A stretch of 64,000 bases of DNA from Chondrosia reniformis (taxonomy: Eukaryota > Porifera > Demospongiae > Chondrillida > Chondrillidae). A program made the translations under genes and the position numbers. Below the pieces are notes generated by a model. That model had not been told where the DNA came from. It was given only the letters and a program-made list of their open reading frames with translations, and searched no databases. The DNA lies in assembly GCA_947172415.1 (NCBI GenBank), contig OX359193.1:754501-818500 (forward strand). Reading direction: 5' to 3'. This document shows, one piece after another, positions 34,571-59,962 of this stretch (the first letter of the stretch is position 1; every line of letters begins with the position of its first letter).

Positions 34571-36300
34571 AGTACATTAACTGTAGTTCTGTAACTCCAT
34601 CAAATGGAGAGATATGAAGCTAAATCTTATTGTCAGCATTCACAGACATCCTATAGAGCATGTCCAATGGGTTTGTGCAATTTTGATGAAACTTAAAATT
34701 TGCCCTATCTCTCACCATACATACATTAATTTTGTATACCAGAAGTTAATGTACATTGAGGGCTGTAACTCTTTCAAATGGAGAGATATGAAGCTAAACC
34801 TTTGTGTCAGCATTCACAGACATCTATACAACATGTCCAATGGGTTTTTGAAATTTTGATGAAACTTAAAAGTTGCCTTATCTCTCACCATACATTAACT
34901 TGGTATACCAGAAGTTAATGTACATTGAGGGCTGTAACTCTATCAAATGGAGAGATATGAAGCTAAACCTTTGTGTCAGCATTCACAGACATCTATAGAG
35001 CATGTCCAATGGGTTTTTGAAATTTTGATGAAACTTAAAATTTGCCCTATCTCTCACCATTCGTACATTAACTTTGTTTACCAGAAGTTAATGTACATTG
35101 AGGGCTGTAACTCTATCAAATGGAGAGATATGAAGCTGTGACTTGGTGTCAGCATTCACAGACACCTATAGAATATGTCCAATGAGATTTTGAAATTTTA
35201 ATGGAACTTAAAATTTGCCCTATATCTCTCACCATACAATAACTTTGTATACCAGATATAAATGTACATTGAGTGTTATAACTCTATCAAACAGAAAGAT
35301 ATGAAGTTTATACTTCGTGTCAGCATTCACAGACACCTATAGAGTATGTCCAATGAGATTTTGAAATTTTGATGGAACTTAAAATTTGCCCTATCTCTCA
35401 CCATACATTAACTTTGTATACAAGAATTTAATGTACATTGAGTATTATAACTCTATCAAACAGTAAGATATAAAGTTAATACTTTGTGTCAGCATTCACA
35501 GTCACCTATAGAGTATGTCCAATGAGTTTTTGAAATTTTGATGGAACTTAAAATTTGCCCTATCTCTCACCATACATTAACTTTGTATACTAGATATAAA
35601 GGTACATTGAGTATTATAACTCTATCAAACAGAAAGATATGAAGCTTATACTTCGTGTCAGCATTCACAGACACCTATAGAGTATGTCCAATGAGATTTT
35701 GAAATTTTGATGGAACTTAAAATTTGCCCTATATCTCTCACCATACAATAACTTTGTATACCAGATATAAATGTACATTGAGTGTTATAACTCTATCAAA
35801 CAGAAAGATATGAAGTTTATACTTCGTGTCAGCATTCACAGACACCTATAGAGTATGTCCAATGAGATTTTGAAATTTTGATGGAACTTAAAATTTGCCC
35901 TATCTCTCACCATACATTAACTTTGTATACAAGAATTTAATGACTTTTGTACATTGAGTATTATAACTTTATCAAATAGAAAGATATGAAGTCAATACTT
36001 TGTGTCAGCATTCACAGACACCTATAGAGTATGTCCAATGAGATTTTGAAATTTTGATGGAACTTAAAATTTGCCCTATCTCTCACCATACATTAACTTT
36101 GTATACAAGAATTTAATGACTTTTGTACATTGAGTATTATAACTTTATCAAATAGAAAGATATGAAGTCAATACTTTGTGTCAGCATTCACAGACACCTA
36201 TAGAGTATGTCCAATGAGTTTTTGAAATTTTGATGGAACTTAAAATTTGCCCTATATCTCTCACCGTACATTAACTTTGTATACCAAAATGTAATGTACA
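34571..36300 (+). repeat. Satellite of about ten ~170-bp units
   Basis: The anchor GTACATTGAG recurs at 34751, 34920, 35093, 35263, 35433, 35602, 35773, 35949 and 36125, spacing 169-176 bp; a diverged first unit begins near 34571. Each unit contains GTCAGCATTCACAGACA, ATGTCCAATG[AG]G and TTTGCCCTATCTCTCACCAT. The last two junctions carry an extra GACTTTT. Short ORFs here repeat with the unit and are not genes. Confidence 0.95.
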
Positions 36301-36435
36301 TACGTATATACCAAACACAATCATAGCTTACAATAAATCATTTATTTAAATAAAGTGAGTTATGGTACAAAGGCCATTCTTGAAGATAAAATTTAGTGTT
36401 CAAAAAAGTGATAAATATAATAAAGTACATTTTGG

Positions 36436-47281: not shown

Positions 47282-49018
47282 TCATTGTGTGAAATCTGTG
47301 ATACTGCTCTCTCCAGCTGTCAACTGTCTCAGAACCAGTTTCTTGTATATGCCATCTCTTGCTATCAGTTCATCATGAGTGCCCATCTCCTCAGCGCGAC
47401 CCTTGTTAATGACTATCACCTAAGTCAGTGAGACAGCAATCACACAGCACTGTTACAACATGTTTACCAAATCAGTAACCACTAAATAATCAAGTATTGC
47501 ATAATATATCATAATATATGTATTTTGTACTACTGAAGAATTTATTCTTAGAGAAGAACTGATAAAGGGCAGATCTAGGGGAATGTTTCAAGCTTTCTTG
47601 GGAGCAACTAAAAGGGAATTTAAAAGGGAATTTAAAAGGGAATTTTAGAGATTTCCTTTTCCTACTTTTAATTTTCAAAATGATTTACTAATTTTAAGTG
47701 TATAACAATGATCCATTATCCCCAGTTAACAGAATTTAACTAGAGAAAGTCTTCCAATGAACAACCCCTCAACATTGCCCCTAGATCTTCATATTTCAGA
47801 GCAATTATCACACATATCAGAAATCATTGTTAAATGTAGACTATTTGTGTCTTGTATCATTAAATTCATCTTTACACAAATTATACCACTTAGACAATTT
47901 AGTATACCCTTTACAAGTGACCAACCTACCACTGCTATGGCTTAATAAGGCTTTACATAGTCAATGTCACTGGACTGTGACTAATGTTCAGTTACATGCT
48001 TAATACAGCTATCAACTAGCCAACCAACCAGCCAGCCAGCCAGCTAGCTAGCCAACCAGCCAACCAGTAACCAACCAGCCAACCAGTAACCAACACTTAC
48101 TTTATCAGCATTGCGTACAGTTGACAGGCGATGGGCAATTACCAGCACCGTTCTGCCCTTCATGGCTCTATCAATGGCTTCTTGAACCAAGTGTTCACTC
48201 TCAGCGTCCAGGGCACTTGTAGCCTAATGGAGCAAAGATTTCATCATATAGCATTTCAACTTTGAGCAGAAGTTGTGAACTAATAATACCACTAGAGCAC
48301 TAGCTATTAGCCAAGCAGTACAGATACACATAATATCTTTGGGAAGTGCATATTGAACACTAATTAGGTTTAGACACGTCAGCTTCCCAACAGAGATGTT
48401 GGAACAGTCAACTAGGCTGCTTCTGTGGCTAATTGAGTGAATTATCTCTAGTCCATTTGCTGACGACTACACTCATTAAAAGTGATAATCTGATTGGTTG
48501 TCCGTGTCCCTACTTCATCCAATAGGAGAATGGCAGGATCCACTAGCAGTGCCCTTGCTATTGCTATCCTCTGCTTCTGACCTCCAGACAGCCTCACTCC
48601 CCTCTCCCCTACCATGGTGTCATACCCCTCCTATAGGGGGTGAGGAAAGAATGGCACTAAAACAGACAAGACACTTGTATGATTTCTTTTAGGAGGGGCA
48701 GACATTTGCCCCTCCCCCTTAAAGAAAATCAAATTGCAGTTTTTACTAGCAAACAAAGATATGGAATTAAGTAGGCTGTCCCTCAATATTTCTCTATATT
48801 GTATTCCCCCTCTTGTAATATTTTCTCTAAAACAAATCCTGATTTGGATTGATGCTAAACACATACGACTATAATATTACGACAAATAAGCCGGAACTGG
48901 CTAGTCAATCTCTTTCTTTTAGATTGTCACTTTAATAATCAATGTTATTATTATTATTACAATAATTGAGAGTTCTGAGTTCAGAGAGTTCACTAACAAT
49001 AGTAATAACAATGATATG

Positions 49019-49065
<47 letters not shown>

Positions 49066-49342
49066 AATAAGGGTAACTGGCACTGTTGCTGACAATCAAT
49101 AGGTGAGCACATCAAGAGCAGATACATTGATAGGACTGGGAATTGATCCAATCACGGATGCAGCATTCCCAGCCCAAATGGCAACTGAGAGCTGTTGCAA
49201 TAGATAGGCATAGGACTTGGGCTCTCCATTTACCATTATTATTATTATTATTATTATTATTATACTAACATCAGAAATCAAAATACAACCTTAACATAAA
49301 ATTTAAATTTACAATGGATAAATAATAATAATAGTAATATTG

Positions 49343-49428
<86 letters not shown>

Positions 49429-52400
49429 GGAATAATAACAAACACATAGATGGAATAATATATATGCAGTGTGCACTCATACCTCAAATGTAACGATGAA
49501 ATCATGTGCATTAGCCTGAATAGCTGCCTCTTTCATCTACGTATATAACCAAGAGAAGAATGCAACAAGGCTGGAACACAATTCCTGCTTAAGATGTAAT
49601 GGTAAGTTGATAAGAGTGTAGTTCATAAGTCACAAATGTGTCAGTCTACAGTGACTTCTGTAACCAAGCAACCACATATCCTACAGTTCTAGCCATGTGA
49701 GCGAGGGAGATTTAAAACACAATGTTTAGAATGTTTCTATATATATCTCCTATATTTAAAATTAGTAACATAGTGATTGTATTACAAGAAAGCATTCAAA
49801 ACAGTGCAAACAGTTATATGATCAGGAAACAGGCCATTTGATGACATTCTTAGCATAAACAAGTGATTATATAGCCTCCACTCACCTCACAGTCACTAGT
49901 GTCACTCACCTCACAGTCACTAGTGTCACTCACCTCACAGTCACTAGTGTCACTCACCTCACAGTCACTAGTGTCACTCACCTCACAGTCACTAGTGTCA
50001 CTCGCCTCACAGTCACTAGTGTCACTCGCCTCACAGTCACTAGTGTCACTCGCCTCACAGTCACTAGTGTCACTCACCTCACAGTCACTAGTGTCACTCA
50101 CCTCACAGTCAATAGTGTCACTCACCTCACAGTCACTAGTGTCACTCGCCTCACAGTCACTAGTGTCACTCACCTACCACTCACTAGTGTCACTCACCTC
50201 ACAGTCACTAGTGTCACTCACCTCACAGTCACAAGCGTCACTCACCTCACAGTCACTAGTGTCACTCACCTCACAGTCACTAGTGTCACTCACCTCACAG
50301 TCACAAGCGTCACTCACCTCACAGTCACTAGCGTCACTCACCTCACAGTCACTAGTGTCACTCATCTCACAGTCACAAGCGTCACTCACCTCACAGTCAC
50401 AAGCGTCACTCACCTCACAGTCACTAGTGTCACTCGCCTCACAGTCACTAGTGTCACTCACCTCACAGTCACTAGTGTCACTCACCTCACAGTCACAAGC
50501 GTCACTCACCTCCTGATCAGTAGCATCACTCCTGCCAAATTTAATGTTGTCTGCAATTGAGCAGGCAAACAGCACCGGCTCTTGACTAACAACACTGATG
50601 TGACGTCTAAACCAGACTGGATCCAAGTCTCTCAGGTTATGATCACCTAATGTAGACATGCAGATCAGCTATGTATGTGACATGCTGTACAGATCACCAT
50701 TAGAGGCAAAACAGCATTAACAGAGACTGCCAACTGCACGTGGTCATTTAGGTAAATGCAGTTGTGAATACATGAAGTACATGAGAAGGCAATCTGAAGT
50801 GACAGCAGTCCACTTACTGAGAAGAATGCGACCACTTTCCAGATCATAAAACCTCTCCAGCAGATTGACAATGGTTGACTTCCCTCCTCCCGAGGGTCCG
50901 ACTAGAGCCACCACTTGTCCCGGCTCCACCTCAAAGGATAGACCCTACAATTCAAGTGATAACCAAACCACAACTGTTTATATTTGAGGAAATACAAAAA
51001 TGTAATTTTGTGAATAGTACGTAACTAGGGCAGCTGGTCTAAATCAACGGTACTCTAACATTGAGCTACAATTATCACAGTTATGCAATTAAATGTGTCA
51101 GCCAGAACAAAATGGCTGACTGTATACGTTAGCCAGAACAAAATGGCTGACTGTACATAACATCTGGTCAGCTGACATGCTATTCCATAACACTTACGTA
51201 CCTGTAGAACTTCATTTTCAGGTCGTGATGGATACTTAAAAGTGACCTTTTCAAAGGCAAACCTTCCTTTGAGGTAATCCAACTTCTGACTGCCGTCTCT
51301 GATTTGAGGGATCCGGTCCATCAGATCAAATATCCTCACAGAAGCACCGACAGCCTGTGACAAGATGGCATTTAGAACAATAATCATGTACACCTTCACT
51401 TCTGTGGCCTTTGATCTGTATAGTCAATTTGATTGGTACAATTTGATACTGTACAAGTTATTATACATAAATGCAACTACGTAAATGGATATTATCAAGT
51501 ACACCTCATTCCTACAGACGTGGTTGACACCAATTATTAGGATAAGATTTAATACTTAAATAGATTGCTTTCCTGAACCTATTACTTGGGGAAAACTATA
51601 GAGCTTTGGATGAGGATACAGTCTCATACCAACTTTTCTTCTTTTCTTCCAACTGACCATGCTTGATTGTATTATTACTACTTGGCCAGGTCAACCCATA
51701 GAAAAGATTATTGGGCAATAGTTCAGAGCTATTGCACAACAAATTGACTTACTTGCATAAAGTCACCATAGAGACTGGAGAGGAATGCAAAGGCCATTGC
51801 CAGATTGAGTGTGTACAACATGAGAGCAGTCAGGGTCCCCGATGTAATATCATGCGTGTACACCAAGTAACCTCCATACCAGAGCACTAGGACAGCCGCA
51901 CCCTGCAAGATGGAGGTTCAACAAAGTAACATGGCCGACAGCACAAGTAACTATAGTCTGGCAAGCCAGACCTTACATCCATGATACGTTGAAAGTAGTT
52001 TCTCTCGGAAATATGGTCTGGCCCCCTGACTATTATGTACACATCATTATTCATGTAATGACAAAACATGGCTGACAACACAGGTAACTATTATACATGT
52101 AATGACGAAACATGCAATCCTAATGGAATTGGTACTCCTACTGTAGCTCAATAATTATCAACCAATAACATCTAAAGTCCTTGTTTCTACTGCCTAAAAT
52201 GGTGCGTGGGCGTGTGTCTATGTACCTTAAATCAATGTACAGTTTGAAAAGGTCAATTATTCTAAATAAAGGCACAACCATCCTTACAACACAATCTGTA
52301 TCACAGTGAAGTCTATATTCTCTTATTCAGGATATGTATGTATGTACATCTTAGCAACTAGTGGTCTAGACAGTCTATCTACAAGTTACCTACCTGTACC

Positions 52401-55383
52401 ACAAACCCGACTGTACCAGTAAATATTCCTACAGAAAGATGTGGAGGAATGAGATGGTACTTGCAATGGTTCTCCCTAAACAGTGTTAACACTGCACGTT
52501 ACCTGTCAACGCAGCCAGTCTCTTTCCCATGTCGTAGCTGATATTGATATCCTTGTCGTACAACTTCATCATTTTAGGATCGTTTGAGAAGGACCGCACT
52601 GTTCTAATGTTGGATATGGACTCCTCAGCAGTGCTGGAAGCTTGAGCCAGAGCGTCCTGAAAGCGCTTCCTATAGTTCTTCACATATTTGCCTAAACAAT
52701 AGAGCACTTGTAGTATAATACACCCTCTATGACCACACCCACTTTTATTGGCCACACCCACTTTACCAGTCACACCAATTTCACCCATTACCTGTATCTT
52801 TCAAGTTAACAAATACGATCAGTGGGGTACTTATCACCATGACAACTAACATAATGATAGGGTCTTACCATATTGGACTGCTCCTATGGCTATGATGGGT
52901 ACAACTGACAGGAGGACGGCAGTCAATTTGGGACTCTGCCAGAACATCAAGCCCAAAGCCATCAACATTTGAAGAATATAGCGGACAAGCATGGAAATGT
53001 TGACGGTGACTGCATTCTGCACTGCCTGAGTGTCAGAGGTCAGTCGACTGATCAGCTCGCCAGTTCTAAAAGAAGACACAAGTAGTGATGAAATGAGGCA
53101 GTTCTAAATAAAGACACAAGTAGTGATGAAATGAGGTAGTTCTAAAAGAAGACACAAGTAGTGATGAAATGAGGCAGTTCTAAATAAAGACACAAGTAGT
53201 GATGAAATGAGGCAGTTCTAAATAAAGACACAAGTAGTGATGAAATGAGGTAGTTCTACACTTGACCCTTTGAAGGCTTGCTGCAGCACATGGTGTCTGT
53301 AGTGGCAGAGCTGAACTTACCTGCTTACATCAAAGAACCCGACCTCCTGATGCATAACTGAAGCAAACAGCTACAGAAAGAGGCAAAATAACAGAGAATG
53401 CCTAAAGAACAAATCACAGATAATCTAAAACATCATTTTCCTAAATGTGGTTGAGGAGACTAAATCACAGAGCTTTGTATGTGTGTGTTCAATTGAAAAG
53501 CGTTCCTATTTTATGTACATACATCACACTGCTCACAATATAGTAGCCATCCATACATGTAACAGTCAACCAATCACAACTGAAATCAACACAGAAACTA
53601 ATACACTAGTCATACGCCTCTCAGAGGTAGCCATTTTGAAATGCTCAAATGTGTACAAACCTTCCTTCTTAGCCGTGCTACAAATCGTTCTCCTGCAAGT
53701 GTGAAGAGCCAGGACCTCAAGAGGGTGGCCACAGACCCCACGGTGAAGATGCCAAGCAGAATGAGAGTCTCCTCGGAGAAGGGCCAGATGTCAAAGGGAC
53801 ACTCCGTTGTGCCATTAATAGTGTGGTTACTACATGAACCAACAGAAGATACACATACTGTACAGTGCACTTAGAGGATTACTTTAAGAAGAAATCACAA
53901 GGGGGGACTATAGGAAATTTTGAGGGCAATAATAAAGTTAAATATATTCATTAGCCAAATATTTTTAAGAGGGGTAAGCACACTTCTTCCTCGCCCCCCA
54001 AGGGACACCATGGATTACTATACAAACATGTATGTATGTATGTAGACAGGTACTGTACATGGTTACGTCAGCAAGAACTGCCCCTCCCTCCCCACAGTCA
54101 GGTCCACTCTCTCCACTCCCCACAGTCAGGTCCACTCTCTCTACTCCCCACAGTCAGGTCCACTCTCTCCACTCCCCACAGTCAGGTCCACTCTCTCCAC
54201 TCCCCACAGTCAGGTCCACTCTCTCCACTCCCCACAGTCAGGTCCACTCTCTCCACTCCCCACAGTCAGGTCCACTCTCTCCACTCCCCACAGTCGGGTC
54301 CACTCTCTCCCCTCCCCACAATTACCAAGTGAGGTCCCTGGGTTGAGCTTGGTCAATGACCTTGCCAAAGTACAGAGGAGCCAGCGACCAGGAGACTGAT
54401 CCAACTATTAGAAAGGCTATACCAAATGCCATGATACAATACTCCTACGAAATAAAACGGAGACCACATTTTACATTTTGCACATATAACCATTCAAGAA
54501 TGATAACAACAGTCTAACACATAGGAACGTTGCCAATAGCAACAGTCTAACACATAGGAACGTTGCCAATAGCAACACAGTCTAACACATAGGAACGTTG
54601 CCAATAGCAACACAGTCTAACACATAGGAACGTTGCCAATAGCAACACAGTCTAACACATAGGAACGTTGCCAATAGCAACACAGTCTAACACACATGCA
54701 CCAGGAGGTTCCTAACTCACTGGTTGGGCCAACGCAATGAGTCTCTTTATGTCTGCTCTACCAAACCTCCTTTTTGAATTTTTTGCTGCCTCTACTTCAG
54801 TCCCCTCTCCGTTGATGACGGCAAAGATGTGCAATGCTCTTTCGACCCTGCTCAGCAGCAGCCAGGCAGCCACTGACAGTATAACCTCTACTAAAGGCAG
54901 TACTATAGCAACCACGCCAAGTACCTTATAAGCCACATGCATCCTCACAGACGCCTCGGGCCAGTATTTCACAACAAAACCCAGTTTGACAAAACCGTAC
55001 ACACAGCAAACCAAAGACACCAGAACGACCACTCCCAACTGTAACGTCACGACAAATGGCCTTTCTCCCGTATGACTGCCACTGAGTCTCTTTGTCAACT
55101 TTCTGAGGATCCATTGCTCCAAGAATATCAAGGACGCCGCCAGTATTAACCCTCTGACCACAGCAATGCACGCGAGGTCAAACGTGGAATCAATAAACTC
55201 GAAATGGGTAACGTTGTCCTCCAAATACTGTATACTCCCTGCTGCCAGCCATAGCACTATGCAGGCGATCGCATCGATAGACACCACGAAAAGGAGGAGA
55301 AAGATTACAATGGGAAGAGCGAAGAGTCGCCTCCTAATGGACTTGGGTGCAAGTGCTCCGTGTACTTGGACTTGATTCTCCAT
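47282..55383 (-). CDS. ABCB-family half-transporter (ABCB10/TAP-like core with N-terminal TMD0)
   Basis: Fifteen minus-strand exons: 55383-54721, 54444-54326, 53829-53661, 53370-53321, 53065-52869, 52691-52503, 52428-52394, 51902-51753, 51354-51202, 50944-50818, 50646-50510, 49536-49483, 48630-48514, 48223-48101 and 47419-47282. They encode 806 residues. ATP-driven membrane transporter working as a dimer. Exon 1 alone gives about four hydrophobic helices (TMD0-like), then a six-helix ABC core and one nucleotide-binding domain. Motifs: [19 protein letters not shown], Walker [11 protein letters not shown]-loop V-V-S-Q-E-P-V-L-F, signature LSGGQKQR, Walker B I-L-L-L-D-E and H-loop I-A-H-R-L-S. 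The core (DPVWFRR, CSIADNI) is nearest ABCB10, while the N-terminal extension recalls TAP/ABCB9. Minisatellites crowd its splice sites. Confidence 0.94.
48001..48098 (-). repeat. CCAACCAG-type short repeat next to an ABCB donor
   Basis: CCAACCAGCC and CCAACCAGTAAC steps repeat up to the donor of exon 14 (GATAAA|GTAAGTG at 48100). The repeat ends within a few bases of the splice site. Confidence 0.8.
49345..49429. repeat. (ATT)n microsatellite
   Basis: About 28 uninterrupted ATT triplets in the ABCB intron after exon 12. A shorter ATT run lies at 49229-49262 and a CAA run at 49020-49063 in the same intron. Confidence 0.97.
49884..50509 (-). repeat. 24-bp minisatellite of tandem 5' splice sites, 26 units
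   Basis: It begins exactly at the donor of ABCB exon 11 (CAGGAG|GTGAGT). Each unit starts GTGAGTGAC and ends GACTGTGAG, so every junction recreates GAG|GTGAGT. Of 26 units after the true donor about 20 carry GTGAGT, five carry GCGAGT and one ATGAGT. The minus-strand frame stays open (V-S-D-T-S-D-C-E per unit) through about 13 units until a TAG near 50172. Confidence 0.95.
53061..53255 (-). repeat. 38-bp minisatellite duplicating a 3' splice site, 5 units
   Basis: Units start at 53061, 53099, 53137, 53175 and 53213 with a partial at 53251. On the minus strand each contains CTT[CT]TTTTAG or TTTATTTAG followed by AACT, i.e. the polypyrimidine tract, AG and the first bases of ABCB exon 5. The true acceptor is the one next to 53065. 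Confidence 0.92.
54093..54316 (-). repeat. 28-bp tandem repeat, 8 copies
   Basis: Unit CACAGTCAGGTCCACTCTCT plus CCACTCCC (plus strand), starting at 54093, 54121, 54149 and onward. It lies in the ABCB intron directly after the exon 2 donor (GTAATT), beginning about 10 bp into the intron. ORFs through it on the plus strand are artefacts. Confidence 0.95.
54506..54690 (-). repeat. ~33-35-bp tandem repeat, 5 copies
   Basis: Unit contains CACATAGGAACGTTGCCAAT and AGCAACA(CA)GTCTAA. It lies in ABCB intron 1, starting about 30 bp past the exon 1 donor at 54720. Confidence 0.93.
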
Positions 55384-56098: not shown

Positions 56099-57086
56099 TC
56101 ATGTTAACTCATGGCACCTTATTGAACAATCACAGTAACTGCAGTTCACTATCCCATCATCATCATTCTCAAATGCAAAACACTCACAACAGTTACGACA
56201 AACACCTAATTGCACATGCCTACCGCGAGCATGGCCACAATAATCACACCAGATATCCTTTTCATGAGATTGAAATACTGCACAATCACAATTGGACGCA
56301 GTACACCTGCCTCTGTAGGTACATTTAGAAGTACCTTCTTCCTCAAACCTTTGACCAAGTACTTCAGATTCCATCAACTGCACTTTTGTCACAAATTCTT
56401 CAAGCTGCTCTGTCACAAGAGAGAGATGTTCATGGACTTCATCCTTCAAGTGCTGTGGCAGTTTGCTTCTGACAAATCTCTCCTGGCATCCATGTTTCCT
56501 GTAGGTGCATGAGATAACTTGCAGTGGACACTCATTCAAATGTTTCTCTACCTCTCCGCGAGGCATGCACTGATCATTGCATCTATTAGGACAAATTACA
56601 GGATATTTTAGGCACACACTGTCGTAATGTCTCCCAATCACTTCTTGGTAGGTTGCGCTGTAAAAGCAATACTTGCAAGAGTATGGCCTTAGAACACAAT
56701 TTTCCTCAATATGCTTCTTGATTTCAGATCGCCTTGCCTTCGCCCCACAATTGTGTGGACAAGATAAAGAGACGTAAATACACTCGCCTTCCATTTTACC
56801 TCGACTAAGATGTTCATTAATTTCCTGAACTGTACCCTCCCAAGAACATCCGTCTTCACGATAAATGCAGTAAATTTTCAAACTAAGGACCTTTCTCTTT
56901 TCCTTCAAGTCGCGCATAAATTGAAAGCTTTTACTATTACATATTGGACATCTAAATGTTTGCTTTTTCGCCGCCTTAAGGCAACTCTCACAAATGTGAT
57001 GGCCGCAACATCCCGTGAGCTGGGGATCCTTAAAAACAAGCAGGCAAATAGGACACTTCAAGTCTTCATCTGGCTTCTCAATGAAA
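56099..57086 (-). CDS. RING / TRAF-type zinc-finger protein, body of gene; start exon separated by a transposon
   Basis: Uninterrupted reading frame to the TGA at 56099-56101. RING C3HC4-type: C-P-I-C, G-C-C-G-H-H-I-C-E-S-C, C-P-I-C, then two or three TRAF-type zinc fingers (C-P-H-N-C-G, C-P-N-R-C, C-P-L-Q-V-I-S-C), a short helical segment and an unusual Cys-rich C-terminus (CNC-like clusters near its end) in place of a MATH domain. Likely a ubiquitin ligase or signalling adaptor. In frame upstream lie Y-T-F-I-E-K-P-D-E-D but no ATG; a TAG occurs inside the transposon end. The missing start is at 59046, beyond the element. Without the element and one 7-bp target copy the frame is 1,020 bp, 339 residues. 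Confidence 0.88.
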
Positions 57087-57093
57087 GTGTAAG

Positions 57094-59014
57094 CATAGAT
57101 ACTCTATACTCCGTAACCGGGATTGGAAACTCGAGTAATGTATAGTTTTTGTATTATAACAATGCACGCGTTTAGTATAAATACAATTGTTACGTCACTT
57201 CCGACGTGACCACCTATGTTAATAAACTTACACAACGGTGAAAGGTGACCTGCCGTTTCACACTCACAGTGAAACAACAGAGCATCTTTTTTCCACATGA
57301 CTCTTCTAGCGCAACACTAAATAGACTAATGCGTGTAACAAAAGCAAATTTTAGGTTAAAAACAGAACGTTTAAATGACTTTTACAAACTTAATCTCACA
57401 GCAAAACACCCAAGCCGCTACTCTATGGCAGAGACAGCAACGAAGTTACATGCTGTATCACAACAAACCTTCTATCAACGTAATCGTCCTAGTTGTCTAC
57501 GTGTACTCGACAGTGTTACCTGCCAGTCTCTCCCAAAATCGCTTGATTTCTCCAAAAAAATCACTTAAACTGCAGTCCATCCACTCTGCGCGATCTATCT
57601 CGGTCATGCTACAGTCAAAAATCGTCCGGTTTGCACTATTCCCCAGCGCGAAGAAGGCTCTATGTTATAGGCAGCCATTTGGAACTAGTATAATGTCGCT
57701 TTCGGTGATATACGAGCTTCAATCTGCCCCCGAGTTGGTGTTAATTGAGGCAGGAATGCAATTTGCGTGGGCGTTCTCAGACCACAACGAGTGCCTTTAT
57801 TTTAAAACAATGAGCTTACACAGCATATGAAAATTATATTATATACATTAATTTACTGTTGTCTGTTGCCTTGCAGGAATAACTGCTTTCGCAGAGGAGC
57901 TTTTCCTTTAGTGGCTCCCCTAGTTGCTTCTTTGTATTCTTCAAGAAGTCTTGAAGCTATTGAATAGCCTCTCAATGTTACCCATAGTTCAATCAAATCT
58001 CTCAACACGACATTGCCTTCTTCTTCATTGAGGTCAACACTTAGCATTGACCAAAGGAAGAGGACATCTTCATCATGCAACACAATAAACATGACTTCTT
58101 TCTTTGAAAGGGCAACACCACCTGGTGAGAGGCTCTTCTTCAACATTGGATATATGCTAACTTCTAATTCCAAGAAAAAGTCATACACCTCCTGTGACAC
58201 TTCAAAGAGTCCACCACGATCAACAACTCTCAGCCATGTAGTGGTGTACTCTAGAAAGTCTTCCTCTTGGTGTGCATCCTGATCAACATCTGTATTTGCT
58301 GCCATGGTGTCTAAAGTCTGGCAGATACTTACAGAATTTTTCTTATTATATTTCTTCTGCAGCCTCTTGATAACATAGCCAGCTATATATCGGATGGCAT
58401 TCTCTTCAATTGTGTCGATATTTCCCTTCCTTTCCATCTTCTCCTGATACCTGCTGGTGGTAATGTCATTGTCCTTTCTGTACATCTCCTTTAATAGTGA
58501 CACAGTGTAATCCAATGTAGCCTTTTGAACCAGGATAGCGTCAATATCCCCACAATGGGTCTTCCAAATAAGTGGCAGCTGTTGCAGTCTAAACTGATGA
58601 TATTGTGGCCAAAGGGAGATCTGAAATGGACTATAGCTAGATTTAGTAGGTAGAGCCATAAGTAAAGCTGAGAGTTCCTTATGGAGGCTTGCATGTAGCA
58701 ATTGCAGCACATTGGGTGACTGTAGCAGCTTCTCTGCCTGTCTTCTAATGCTGCAGTGACGAGGGAGCTTTTCGCTTGAAAAATCGTCGGTACACAACTT
58801 ACGGAGTACAGTCACAAATGATTCAAACTGAAAACAAGCCATTTCGATAGCCGAAAACGACTGGCAACACCTCGAATCGCTACGCAACGATACCGGAAAT
58901 AACGGCCATTTTAATCGGAACGGCGGACATTTTAAAACCGGAATATTAACAAACGTGGTCACGCGTTATCGTTCCGAGTTTCCAATCCCGGTTACGGAGT
59001 ATAGAGTATCTATG
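57094..59014 (-). mobile_element. 1,921-bp DNA transposon with 40-bp perfect terminal inverted repeats
   Basis: Left TIR 57094-57133 and right TIR 58975-59014 are exact reverse complements (outermost bases CATAGATACTC). They are flanked by identical 7-bp copies GTGTAAG at 57087-57093 and 59015-59021, a target site duplication. One minus-strand ORF lies inside. CA...TG termini and a 7-8-bp duplication recall P-type or hAT-type elements, but the superfamily is not settled. The perfect TIRs and intact ORF indicate a recent insertion. Confidence 0.93.
57853..58842 (-). CDS. Transposon-encoded protein (transposase-related, family uncertain)
   Basis: From the first ATG at 58842 the frame encodes 329 residues; it stays open upstream to about 58962 without another ATG in frame. 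Visible blocks are E-E-N-A-I-R-Y-I-A-G-Y-V-I-K-R-L, W-L-R-V-V-D-R-G-G-L-F-E-V-S, D-E-D-V-L-F-L-W-S-M and L-I-E-L-W-V-T-L-R-G-Y-S-I-A-S. This pattern appears in many transposon-derived uncharacterised proteins of sponges and cnidarians and resembles the C-terminal part of THAP/P-element-like transposases. No THAP zinc finger or DDE/RNaseH core was recognised, so it may be a truncated or non-autonomous copy. Confidence 0.75.
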   Translation of the reverse strand: MACFQFESFVTVLRKLCTDDFSSEKLPRHCSIRRQAEKLLQSPNVLQLLHASLHKELSALLMALPTKSSYSPFQISLWPQYHQFRLQQLPLIWKTHCGDIDAILVQKATLDYTVSLLKEMYRKDNDITTSRYQEKMERKGNIDTIEENAIRYIAGYVIKRLQKKYNKKNSVSICQTLDTMAANTDVDQDAHQEEDFLEYTTTWLRVVDRGGLFEVSQEVYDFFLELEVSIYPMLKKSLSPGGVALSKKEVMFIVLHDEDVLFLWSMLSVDLNEEEGNVVLRDLIELWVTLRGYSIASRLLEEYKEATRGATKGKAPLRKQLFLQGNRQQ

Positions 59015-59046: not shown

Positions 59047-59131
59047 TTTTGTCAATTAGTCTCGCAGATTCCAGACCGATATTAATTCCGTTCCTATCGC
59101 GATATCGCTCCATGCACGAAATACCACAAAA
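59047..59131. promoter_or_regulatory. Probable shared promoter, RING/TRAF gene / methyltransferase
   Basis: The two divergent ATGs (59046 minus, 59132 plus) are 85 bp apart. No core promoter motif was recognised. Confidence 0.4.
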
Positions 59132-59962
59132 ATGGAGACAAAGACCAGTATTGTCCAAGAAGGTTTTAATGTTGCCAATAACGATCCAAACGATTACCGG
59201 GTGTTTAAGGATAAGGTGGAGGGTGTGTTGACCACACTGCTGCACTCTGCAGATCGCTTTCAGCCAATCACCAAACGGGAAGACAAGAGCGTGCTACCTT
59301 TGGAGGTCGTAAAGGGGGAGACACAGGGCAAGCTTTTAACAACCCACAAAGGAGTATTTCTTATGAAGGGACCGCATGATATAGCACTTTATCATCAGTT
59401 TCTGTGGCACGTCAAGCCTGCCACCATTATCGAGCTGGGTGTTTTCCACGGGGGATCCGCTATTTGGTTTGGCGACACTGCGAAACAATTGGGGATAGAA
59501 TGTAGAGTGTTTGCTATCGACATCGACCTTTCTCTAGTCTCCGAGAAGGTGCATCTTGTCAAGCCAGATAATGTTACCTTTTTGGAAGGGGACTGTTTCA
59601 AGATTGAGCAAGTACTTACTCGCGAAATGGTTTCAAAGTTTGCCCATCCGATTGTGCTGATCGATGACGCTCATGCTAATTCTCCCGGTGTTATGCAGTA
59701 TTTTCACAGTTTTTCCAAGCCAGGAGATTACATTATCATTGAAGACACATCTTTCCTCAATCCCACAACTAATGGGATGGGTCTAGATCTATTTCCTGAG
59801 CTAGGGTGCCAACACCCACAGAATCCAGCAGCAAAGATGAACGAGCTAAGAAAGTTTATGGAGCAAAATGAAGGGAAATATTTGGTGGATACATTCTTTA
59901 CAGATTTCTATGGGTACAATGCGACTTACAATTGGAATGGCTTCATTAAGAGAGTAGCTTAA
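59132..59962 (+). CDS. CmcI / rhamnosyl O-methyltransferase family protein (intronless)
   Basis: Single exon, 276 residues, in a region where most genes have several introns. The family (cephalosporin hydroxylase CmcI, rhamnosyl O-methyltransferase) uses S-adenosylmethionine and is common in bacteria. Motifs: G-V-F-L-M-K-G-P-H-D-I-A-L-Y, the SAM-binding I-I-E-L-G-V-F-H-G-G-S-A, A-I-D-I-D-L-S, F-L-E-G-D, V-L-I-D-D-A-H-A-N and I-I-I-E-D-T-S. No signal peptide or transmembrane helix. The substrate is unknown. Lack of introns and a bacterial-type family suggest ancient lateral transfer. Flanked by clear eukaryotic genes, so not a contaminant contig. Confidence 0.85.
   Translation: METKTSIVQEGFNVANNDPNDYRVFKDKVEGVLTTLLHSADRFQPITKREDKSVLPLEVVKGETQGKLLTTHKGVFLMKGPHDIALYHQFLWHVKPATIIELGVFHGGSAIWFGDTAKQLGIECRVFAIDIDLSLVSEKVHLVKPDNVTFLEGDCFKIEQVLTREMVSKFAHPIVLIDDAHANSPGVMQYFHSFSKPGDYIIIEDTSFLNPTTNGMGLDLFPELGCQHPQNPAAKMNELRKFMEQNEGKYLVDTFFTDFYGYNATYNWNGFIKRVA

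What the first reader, a model, noticed from the sequence alone, without database searches (positions are those of the whole stretch)
49884..50646. Minisatellite made of 26 consecutive 5' splice sites in the ABC transporter gene
The array starts exactly at the donor of exon 11 and each 24-bp unit rebuilds a strong donor (GAG|GTGAGT). The unit is divisible by three and the frame stays open for about 13 units, so using any of those donors would add n x 8 residues (V-S-D-T-S-D-C-E) between the Q-loop region and the signature motif of the nucleotide-binding domain without shifting frame. It may be a length-variable splice 'ruler', a decoy-donor array that sequesters U1 snRNP, or a neutral expansion seeded by the exon-intron junction. 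Five units carry GC in place of GT and one carries AT, which makes graded donor strengths possible. I know of no named class for such an array.
Basis: partly seen in the sequence, partly recalled or inferred. Interest (0 to 1): 0.88.

Follow-up and report, generated by a model that had tools for sequence, protein, structure and literature searches.

The report
Repeated splice-site array in sponge gene
In a sponge transporter gene the start of one intron has been copied 26 times in a row, making a chain of look-alike splice signals; repeats of this kind are already known from amphioxus, more of them turn up in this sponge, and this one is probably neutral.

Summary
The array is real. On the minus strand, exon 11 of a 15-exon ABCB gene ends at 50510 and is followed by 26 units of 24 bp plus a truncated one: 27 donor-like sites (21 GT, 5 GC, 1 AT). 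A named class exists: 'mirages' of amphioxus; human minisatellites at exon-intron boundaries are also described. Of 21 tandem-donor arrays examined, 7 start at an apparent coding-exon end, 3 of them homology-confirmed: this gene, INTS14 (51 sites) and NTHL1. In the six others the second donor would give a stop or frameshift, so the open frame here is not a general design. Interior donors have decayed (6 of 26 units) and an out-of-frame acceptor-like array lies in the same gene. Best reading: a nearly neutral junction minisatellite with the first donor normally used. No RNA or second haplotype was available, so donor choice is inferred; ruler and decoy are not excluded.

The parts
47282..55383 (-). 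ABCB-type half-transporter gene, 15 coding exons, 806 aa
   Evidence: Spliced model open from ATG to stop, all 14 introns GT-AG; Pfam ABC_membrane 5.9e-59 and ABC_tran 1.9e-31
50510..50646 (-). Exon 11 (Q-loop VSQEP to RSDATDQE)
   Evidence: homology to P-glycoprotein chains
49885..50509 (-). 24-bp minisatellite at the exon 11 donor: 26 full units plus the first base of a truncated 27th; 27 donor-like sites (21 GT, 5 GC, 1 AT)
50504..50512 (-). First donor GAG|GTGAGT (last exon base 50510), the one expected to be used
   Evidence: Joining here fits the spacing of the homologues shown to within one residue; use is inferred, not measured
50174..50176 (-). In-frame TAG in the 14th unit; donors beyond it would give a truncated product
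49483..49536 (-). Exon 12, [18 protein letters not shown], phase 0 at both ends
   Evidence: Best 18-residue match to six homologue pieces in the intron; TACGTAG before, GTATGAG after
48514..48630 (-). Exon 13 with the signature motif LSGGQ
53061..53258 (-). 38-bp array of 3' splice site-like units (TAG|AACT, six including the true acceptor of exon 5); period not a multiple of three
54084..54320 (-). 28-bp array starting 5 bp after the exon 2 donor; unit resembles the junction but lacks the donor
   Evidence: exon similarity not significant
54509..54694 (-). 35-bp array 26 bp after the exon 1 donor
   Evidence: exon similarity not significant
48013..48086 (-). 12-bp array 14 bp after the exon 14 donor

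Best explanation
A 'mirage'-type minisatellite: DNA at the junction of exon 11 and intron 11 was duplicated in tandem, then expanded and homogenised by ordinary minisatellite turnover. Every copy carries a 5' splice site because the seed spanned it. The array is close to neutral: the spliceosome is expected to use the first donor (50509), which restores the normal protein, and to treat the other 26 as intron. Shown: the array, its register, the gene model, similar arrays at exon ends in the same genome, decay of interior donors. Inferred: the seeding event in this gene, use of the first donor, neutrality.
For: Donors run in exact 24-bp register from the exon end. The exon's last 24 nt match unit 0 at 15 of 24 positions in register; 15 of 126,432 other window 24-mers reach that, 8 of 7,338 ending in AG, 6 of 1,479 ending in GAG. 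Clearer cases in this genome: INTS14 (L036; 294-aa ORF, Pfam 3.2e-24 with the domain cut at the junction, last 21 exon nt identical to the unit, 51 sites); NTHL1 (L055; the exon, cut at the junction, matches human NTHL1 at 2.5e-28); L056 (last 29 exon nt identical to the unit; weakly SLC37-like); and, by ORF and sequence only, L038, L039, L054. In all 7 of 21 donor arrays examined. First donor expected: in INTS14 it gives VCLREDWYGLMYSG, colinear with human INTS14 with no insertion at the junction, while later donors give AGG TGA; the second donor gives a stop in INTS14, NTHL1, L038, L054 and L056 and a frameshift in L039. A published analysis of near-equal competing donors found upstream preference when the upstream intron is under and the downstream intron over 250 nt; here introns 10 and 11 are 171 and 973 bp. 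GT is lost in 6 of 26 units and column 2 is among the most variable. The best-scoring paralogue, L043, has a GT at the same codon boundary, so the intron is probably older than the array (no RNA).
Against: Exon-unit similarity is weaker here than in INTS14 or L056; a gapped local alignment gives only p = 0.05 against window DNA and 0.11 against exon DNA. Donor-containing arrays are not in excess genome-wide: 329 places against 544 for the mirrored pattern (for GAGGTGAGT alone 186 against 108; for the rest 139 against 396). In 264 kb 1 of 127 minisatellite units holds AGGTRAGT, reversed control 0. Upstream sense ORFs are not longer as a group than antisense ORFs at the far edge. In INTS14 the GT is intact in 49 of 50 full units, which does not look like decay. 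Clustering of arrays at junctions in this gene: Fisher p = 0.008 over 8 arrays including the chosen one, 0.066 without it. In human duplicated genes, repeats at exon-intron boundaries often do give alternative transcripts. No RNA was seen here.
Confidence: 0.72

Rival explanations
1. In-frame splice ruler: alternative use of donors k = 1 to 13 adds n x 8 residues between the Q-loop and the signature motif, and array length sets the isoform range.
For: Period divisible by three, frame open for 13 units, phase 0 on both sides; GT units pair well with U1. In human duplicated genes 66% of repeat-driven intron modifications also show a transcript that keeps the repeat in the exon.
Against: Six of six other exon-end arrays give a stop or frameshift at the second donor. 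The homologues shown have at most a one-residue insertion in the stretch after DQE. The 38-bp array in the same gene is out of frame. An open frame is partly expected if the unit descends from coding sequence.
Confidence: 0.1
2. Decoy array: the extra donors bind U1 snRNP and delay splicing, protect against premature cleavage, or tune transporter output.
For: 20 further GT sites with strong U1 pairing. Larger donor arrays exist in INTS14 and NTHL1.
Against: Donor dinucleotide not preserved within this array (it is largely intact in INTS14). No excess of donor arrays over mirrored arrays genome-wide. No relatives or expression data to test it.
Confidence: 0.1
3. Exonic 8-residue coding repeat ([16 protein letters not shown]...) that became intronic.
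For: All 24 nt align to the exon end in register and the peptide is similar.
Against: Paralogue L043 has a GT at the same codon boundary, so the intron probably predates the array.
Confidence: 0.05
4. Assembly artefact (collapsed or inflated repeat).
For: Tandem arrays are hard to assemble; only one assembly was seen.
Against: Units carry an irregular pattern of variants; the assembly paper gives QV 69.8 for the primary assembly.
Confidence: 0.03

Closest known systems
Mirages of amphioxus (Adh3, globins BflGb6 and BflGb9; PGBD5 and troponin C as cited)
   Same: Minisatellite-like tandem duplication of an exon-intron or intron-exon boundary; many units carry splice signals; both boundary types occur; several genes of one genome. 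The 24-bp unit lies within the 10-72 bp given for Adh3.
   Different: Here a demosponge. The globin example has 3 or 6 units of 150-160 bp; here 27 sites in ABCB and 51 in INTS14. Splicing was checked by RT-PCR in amphioxus globins, not here.
Internal tandem repeats at exon-intron boundaries of human genes in segmental duplications (PMC2812944)
   Same: Minisatellites (30-bp units on average) at exon-intron boundaries that affect splicing (passages).
   Different: About 4 units on average, found by comparing paralogues; reported to form new introns and alternative transcripts. No run of repeated donors is described in the passages seen.
Intron gain by duplication of AG/GT proto-splice sites (as cited in PMC3087553)
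   Same: Tandem duplication that carries AG/GT sites.
   Different: The intron here appears older than the array; no new intron is seen.
Ordinary intronic minisatellites
   Same: Period and homogenisation.
   Different: Starts exactly at the exon end and repeats the splice site.

Membership tests
Mirage | Tandem repeat beginning at or spanning an exon-intron boundary | tested here: met
   First unit starts at the base after exon 11
Mirage | Units contain duplicated exon sequence | tested here: inconclusive
   15 of 24 in register, gapped p 0.05-0.11; clear in INTS14, L038, L056 and visible in L054, L055
Mirage | Many but not all units carry AG/GT signals | tested here: met
   21 GT of 27 sites
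Mirage | Regular splicing not disturbed | not testable with these tools
   No transcripts; frame arguments only
Mirage | Length polymorphism or somatic instability | not testable with these tools
   An alternate haplotype assembly exists but was not at hand
Mirage | Interior units homogenised, boundary units diverged | tested here: inconclusive
   Proximal 13 units differ from consensus by 1.0 on average, distal 13 by 0.62; the truncated 27th unit is divergent
In-frame splice ruler | Open frame in the added units | tested here: met
   13 units
In-frame splice ruler | Use of several donors in transcripts | not testable with these tools
   No RNA
ABCB transporter | Transmembrane and nucleotide-binding domain with Q-loop and signature motif | tested here: met
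   Pfam PF00664 and PF00005 above cut-off; motifs

The most novel reading that the evidence does not exclude
A sponge genome in which exon-intron junctions repeatedly seed long arrays of strong, near-identical donors, so that splicing must pick the first of 27 (ABCB), 51 (INTS14) or dozens (NTHL1) in important genes. Array length could then act as a heritable tuner of splicing efficiency or NMD load.
Probability: 0.12. Interest if true: 0.75.

Novelty: new member of a known kind. Interest (0 to 1): 0.45.

Why it matters
It shows mirage-like arrays in a sponge. In the listings of searches (open-licence library only) the name 'mirage' for such arrays appeared only for cephalochordates; the related human case is PMC2812944. 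The arrays are natural tests of how the spliceosome chooses among many near-identical competing donors, since exon definition and intron definition predict opposite ends of the array.

Tried and rejected
Genome-wide excess of donor arrays: looked for, not found overall. ORF-length comparison: sense ORFs ending at the first donor have median 32.5 aa over 20 arrays, antisense ORFs at the far edge 37 over 15 (five loci held only short flanks), so the count of exon-end arrays rests on the individual cases. Frame filter (periods divisible by three): of the seven exon-end arrays four are multiples of three (24, 33, 27, 39) and three are not (44, 40, 23), and three of those four stop at once, so dropped (the period of L055). 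A first candidate for exon 12 ([18 protein letters not shown]) was rejected because no donor follows it; the accepted exon scored 33.2 against 17.3 (12 of 300 random segments also reached 33.2, the top five with exactly the same score, as expected if they contained the true exon, which had not been excluded). Seeding of the 28-, 35- and 38-bp arrays by exon sequence is not significant (p 0.05, 0.22, 0.89 against window DNA). Pfam found nothing for the array peptides of either strand or for the L038, L039, L054 and L056 ORFs; PDB found nothing for L039. Calling L054 SMYD5-like is recall only; L056 as SLC37-like rests on E = 0.89.

Full report
Setting. The window is G000:C5:754501-818500 of a 117.4-Mb assembly in 15 contigs. 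COX1 with eight TGA codons lies on C15, taken as the mitochondrion. The identification is by match of lengths: strong, but inferred.

Gene. I built a 15-exon minus-strand model, 55383 to 47282, all 14 introns GT-AG, 806 residues. Pfam gives ABC_membrane and ABC_tran. The best PDB relatives by sequence are P-glycoproteins.

Array. 26 full 24-bp units plus a truncated one follow exon 11 directly. Donor positions are 50509 - 24k, k = 0 to 26: 21 GT, 5 GC, 1 AT. The frame stays open through 13 units. The next exon is 49536-49483 and joins in phase 0.

How unusual. Minisatellites are dense here: 127 with period 10-200 in 264 kb, made of 20 fetched stretches of 10 kb and the window. One of the 127 units contains AGGTRAGT, the present one; the reversed control gives 0. 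Three AGGTRAGT sites 6-36 nt apart occur at 329 places against 544 for the mirrored pattern; with GAGGTGAGT alone 186 against 108, with the other first letters 139 against 396. Places are overlapping matches, not distinct arrays. So such arrays are not in excess overall. The listings show 26 distinct regions; they are truncated, so more may exist.

Exon-end arrays. In 7 of the 21 an open reading frame runs to the first donor and the case looks sound on inspection: the window; INTS14 (L036); L038; L039; L054; NTHL1 (L055); L056. Three are confirmed by homology: ABCB, INTS14 (Pfam 3.2e-24; junction colinear with human INTS14) and NTHL1 (2.5e-28; only the first unit was read, the rest is from the listing). 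L056 is weakly SLC37-like (E 0.89). L038, L039 and L054 rest on ORF, frame and exon-unit similarity alone. L032 and L058 lie in long open frames through the array itself and were not counted. In INTS14 the unit ends with the exon's last 21 nt and in L056 with its last 29 nt. Splicing from the second donor gives a stop at once (AGG TGA) in INTS14, NTHL1, L038 and L054, a stop within the first unit in L056, and a frameshift in L039, whose first donor joins in frame to the next exon (the line for L039 was offset and is replaced). Only the ABC array is open.

Within the gene. Eight minisatellites lie in its introns; placed at random within their introns they would be this near an exon with Fisher p 0.008, 0.066 without the array chosen for study. 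One is a 38-bp array of acceptor-like units before exon 5, out of frame, a sign that such arrays are tolerated without frame keeping.

Origin. The exon's last 24 nt and unit 0 agree at 15 of 24 positions in register, RSDATDQE against VSDACDCE; a gapped test is weaker. Of the 10 other genomic matches to exon 11, seven were readable: L043, the best-scoring (48% identity), has a GT at the same codon boundary; L044, L045, L046 and L047, L052, L053 continue without an intron there. L051 did not match the motif used and two were not fetched. So the intron is probably older than the array.

Function. A published analysis of competing donors of near-equal strength (PMC9225289; abstract, one section and passages seen; species of the data not checked) found the upstream donor preferred when the upstream intron is under and the downstream over 250 nt, as here (171 and 973 bp), and the downstream donor when both are short. 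Whether that holds in sponges is unknown. Donor dinucleotides are lost in 6 of 26 units here, but in only 1 of 50 full units in INTS14. I expect first-donor use and near-neutrality.

Known class. PMC3087553 (passages) and PMC3902484 (one passage) describe mirages in amphioxus, including splice signals in many units and RT-PCR suggesting regular splicing. PMC2812944 (passages) describes minisatellites at exon-intron boundaries of human duplicated genes, 27 intron modifications, with new introns and alternative transcripts. The founding mirage paper (Canestro 2002) is not held and was not read. The listings of searches showed no mirage under that name outside cephalochordates; most subscription papers are not in that library, and most listed papers were seen only as listings.

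Noticed in passing
L036 (G000:C4:1801959-1803617): INTS14 carries 51 consecutive donor-like sites (50 GT, 1 AT), 33-bp period; every donor after the first leads to an in-frame TGA.
   Followed up: yes
L055 (G000:C7:220209-222637): NTHL1 exon end followed by a 44-bp donor array; by the listing it spans about 2.4 kb.
   Followed up: partly
window 53061-53258: 38-bp array of acceptor-like sites (TAG|AACT) ahead of exon 5 of the same gene.
   Followed up: partly
window 34592-36301: 169-bp tandem repeat, about 10 copies.
   Followed up: no
window 59060-59962: Single-exon ORF matching RMNT_CmcI (Pfam PF04989, 2.1e-21), a family I recall as mainly bacterial.
   Followed up: no
window 57853-58965: ORF with a P-element transposase C-terminal match (PF12596, 1.7e-05).
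   Followed up: no
window 56099-57103: RING and TRAF-type zinc finger ORF (PF02176, 3.2e-14).
   Followed up: no
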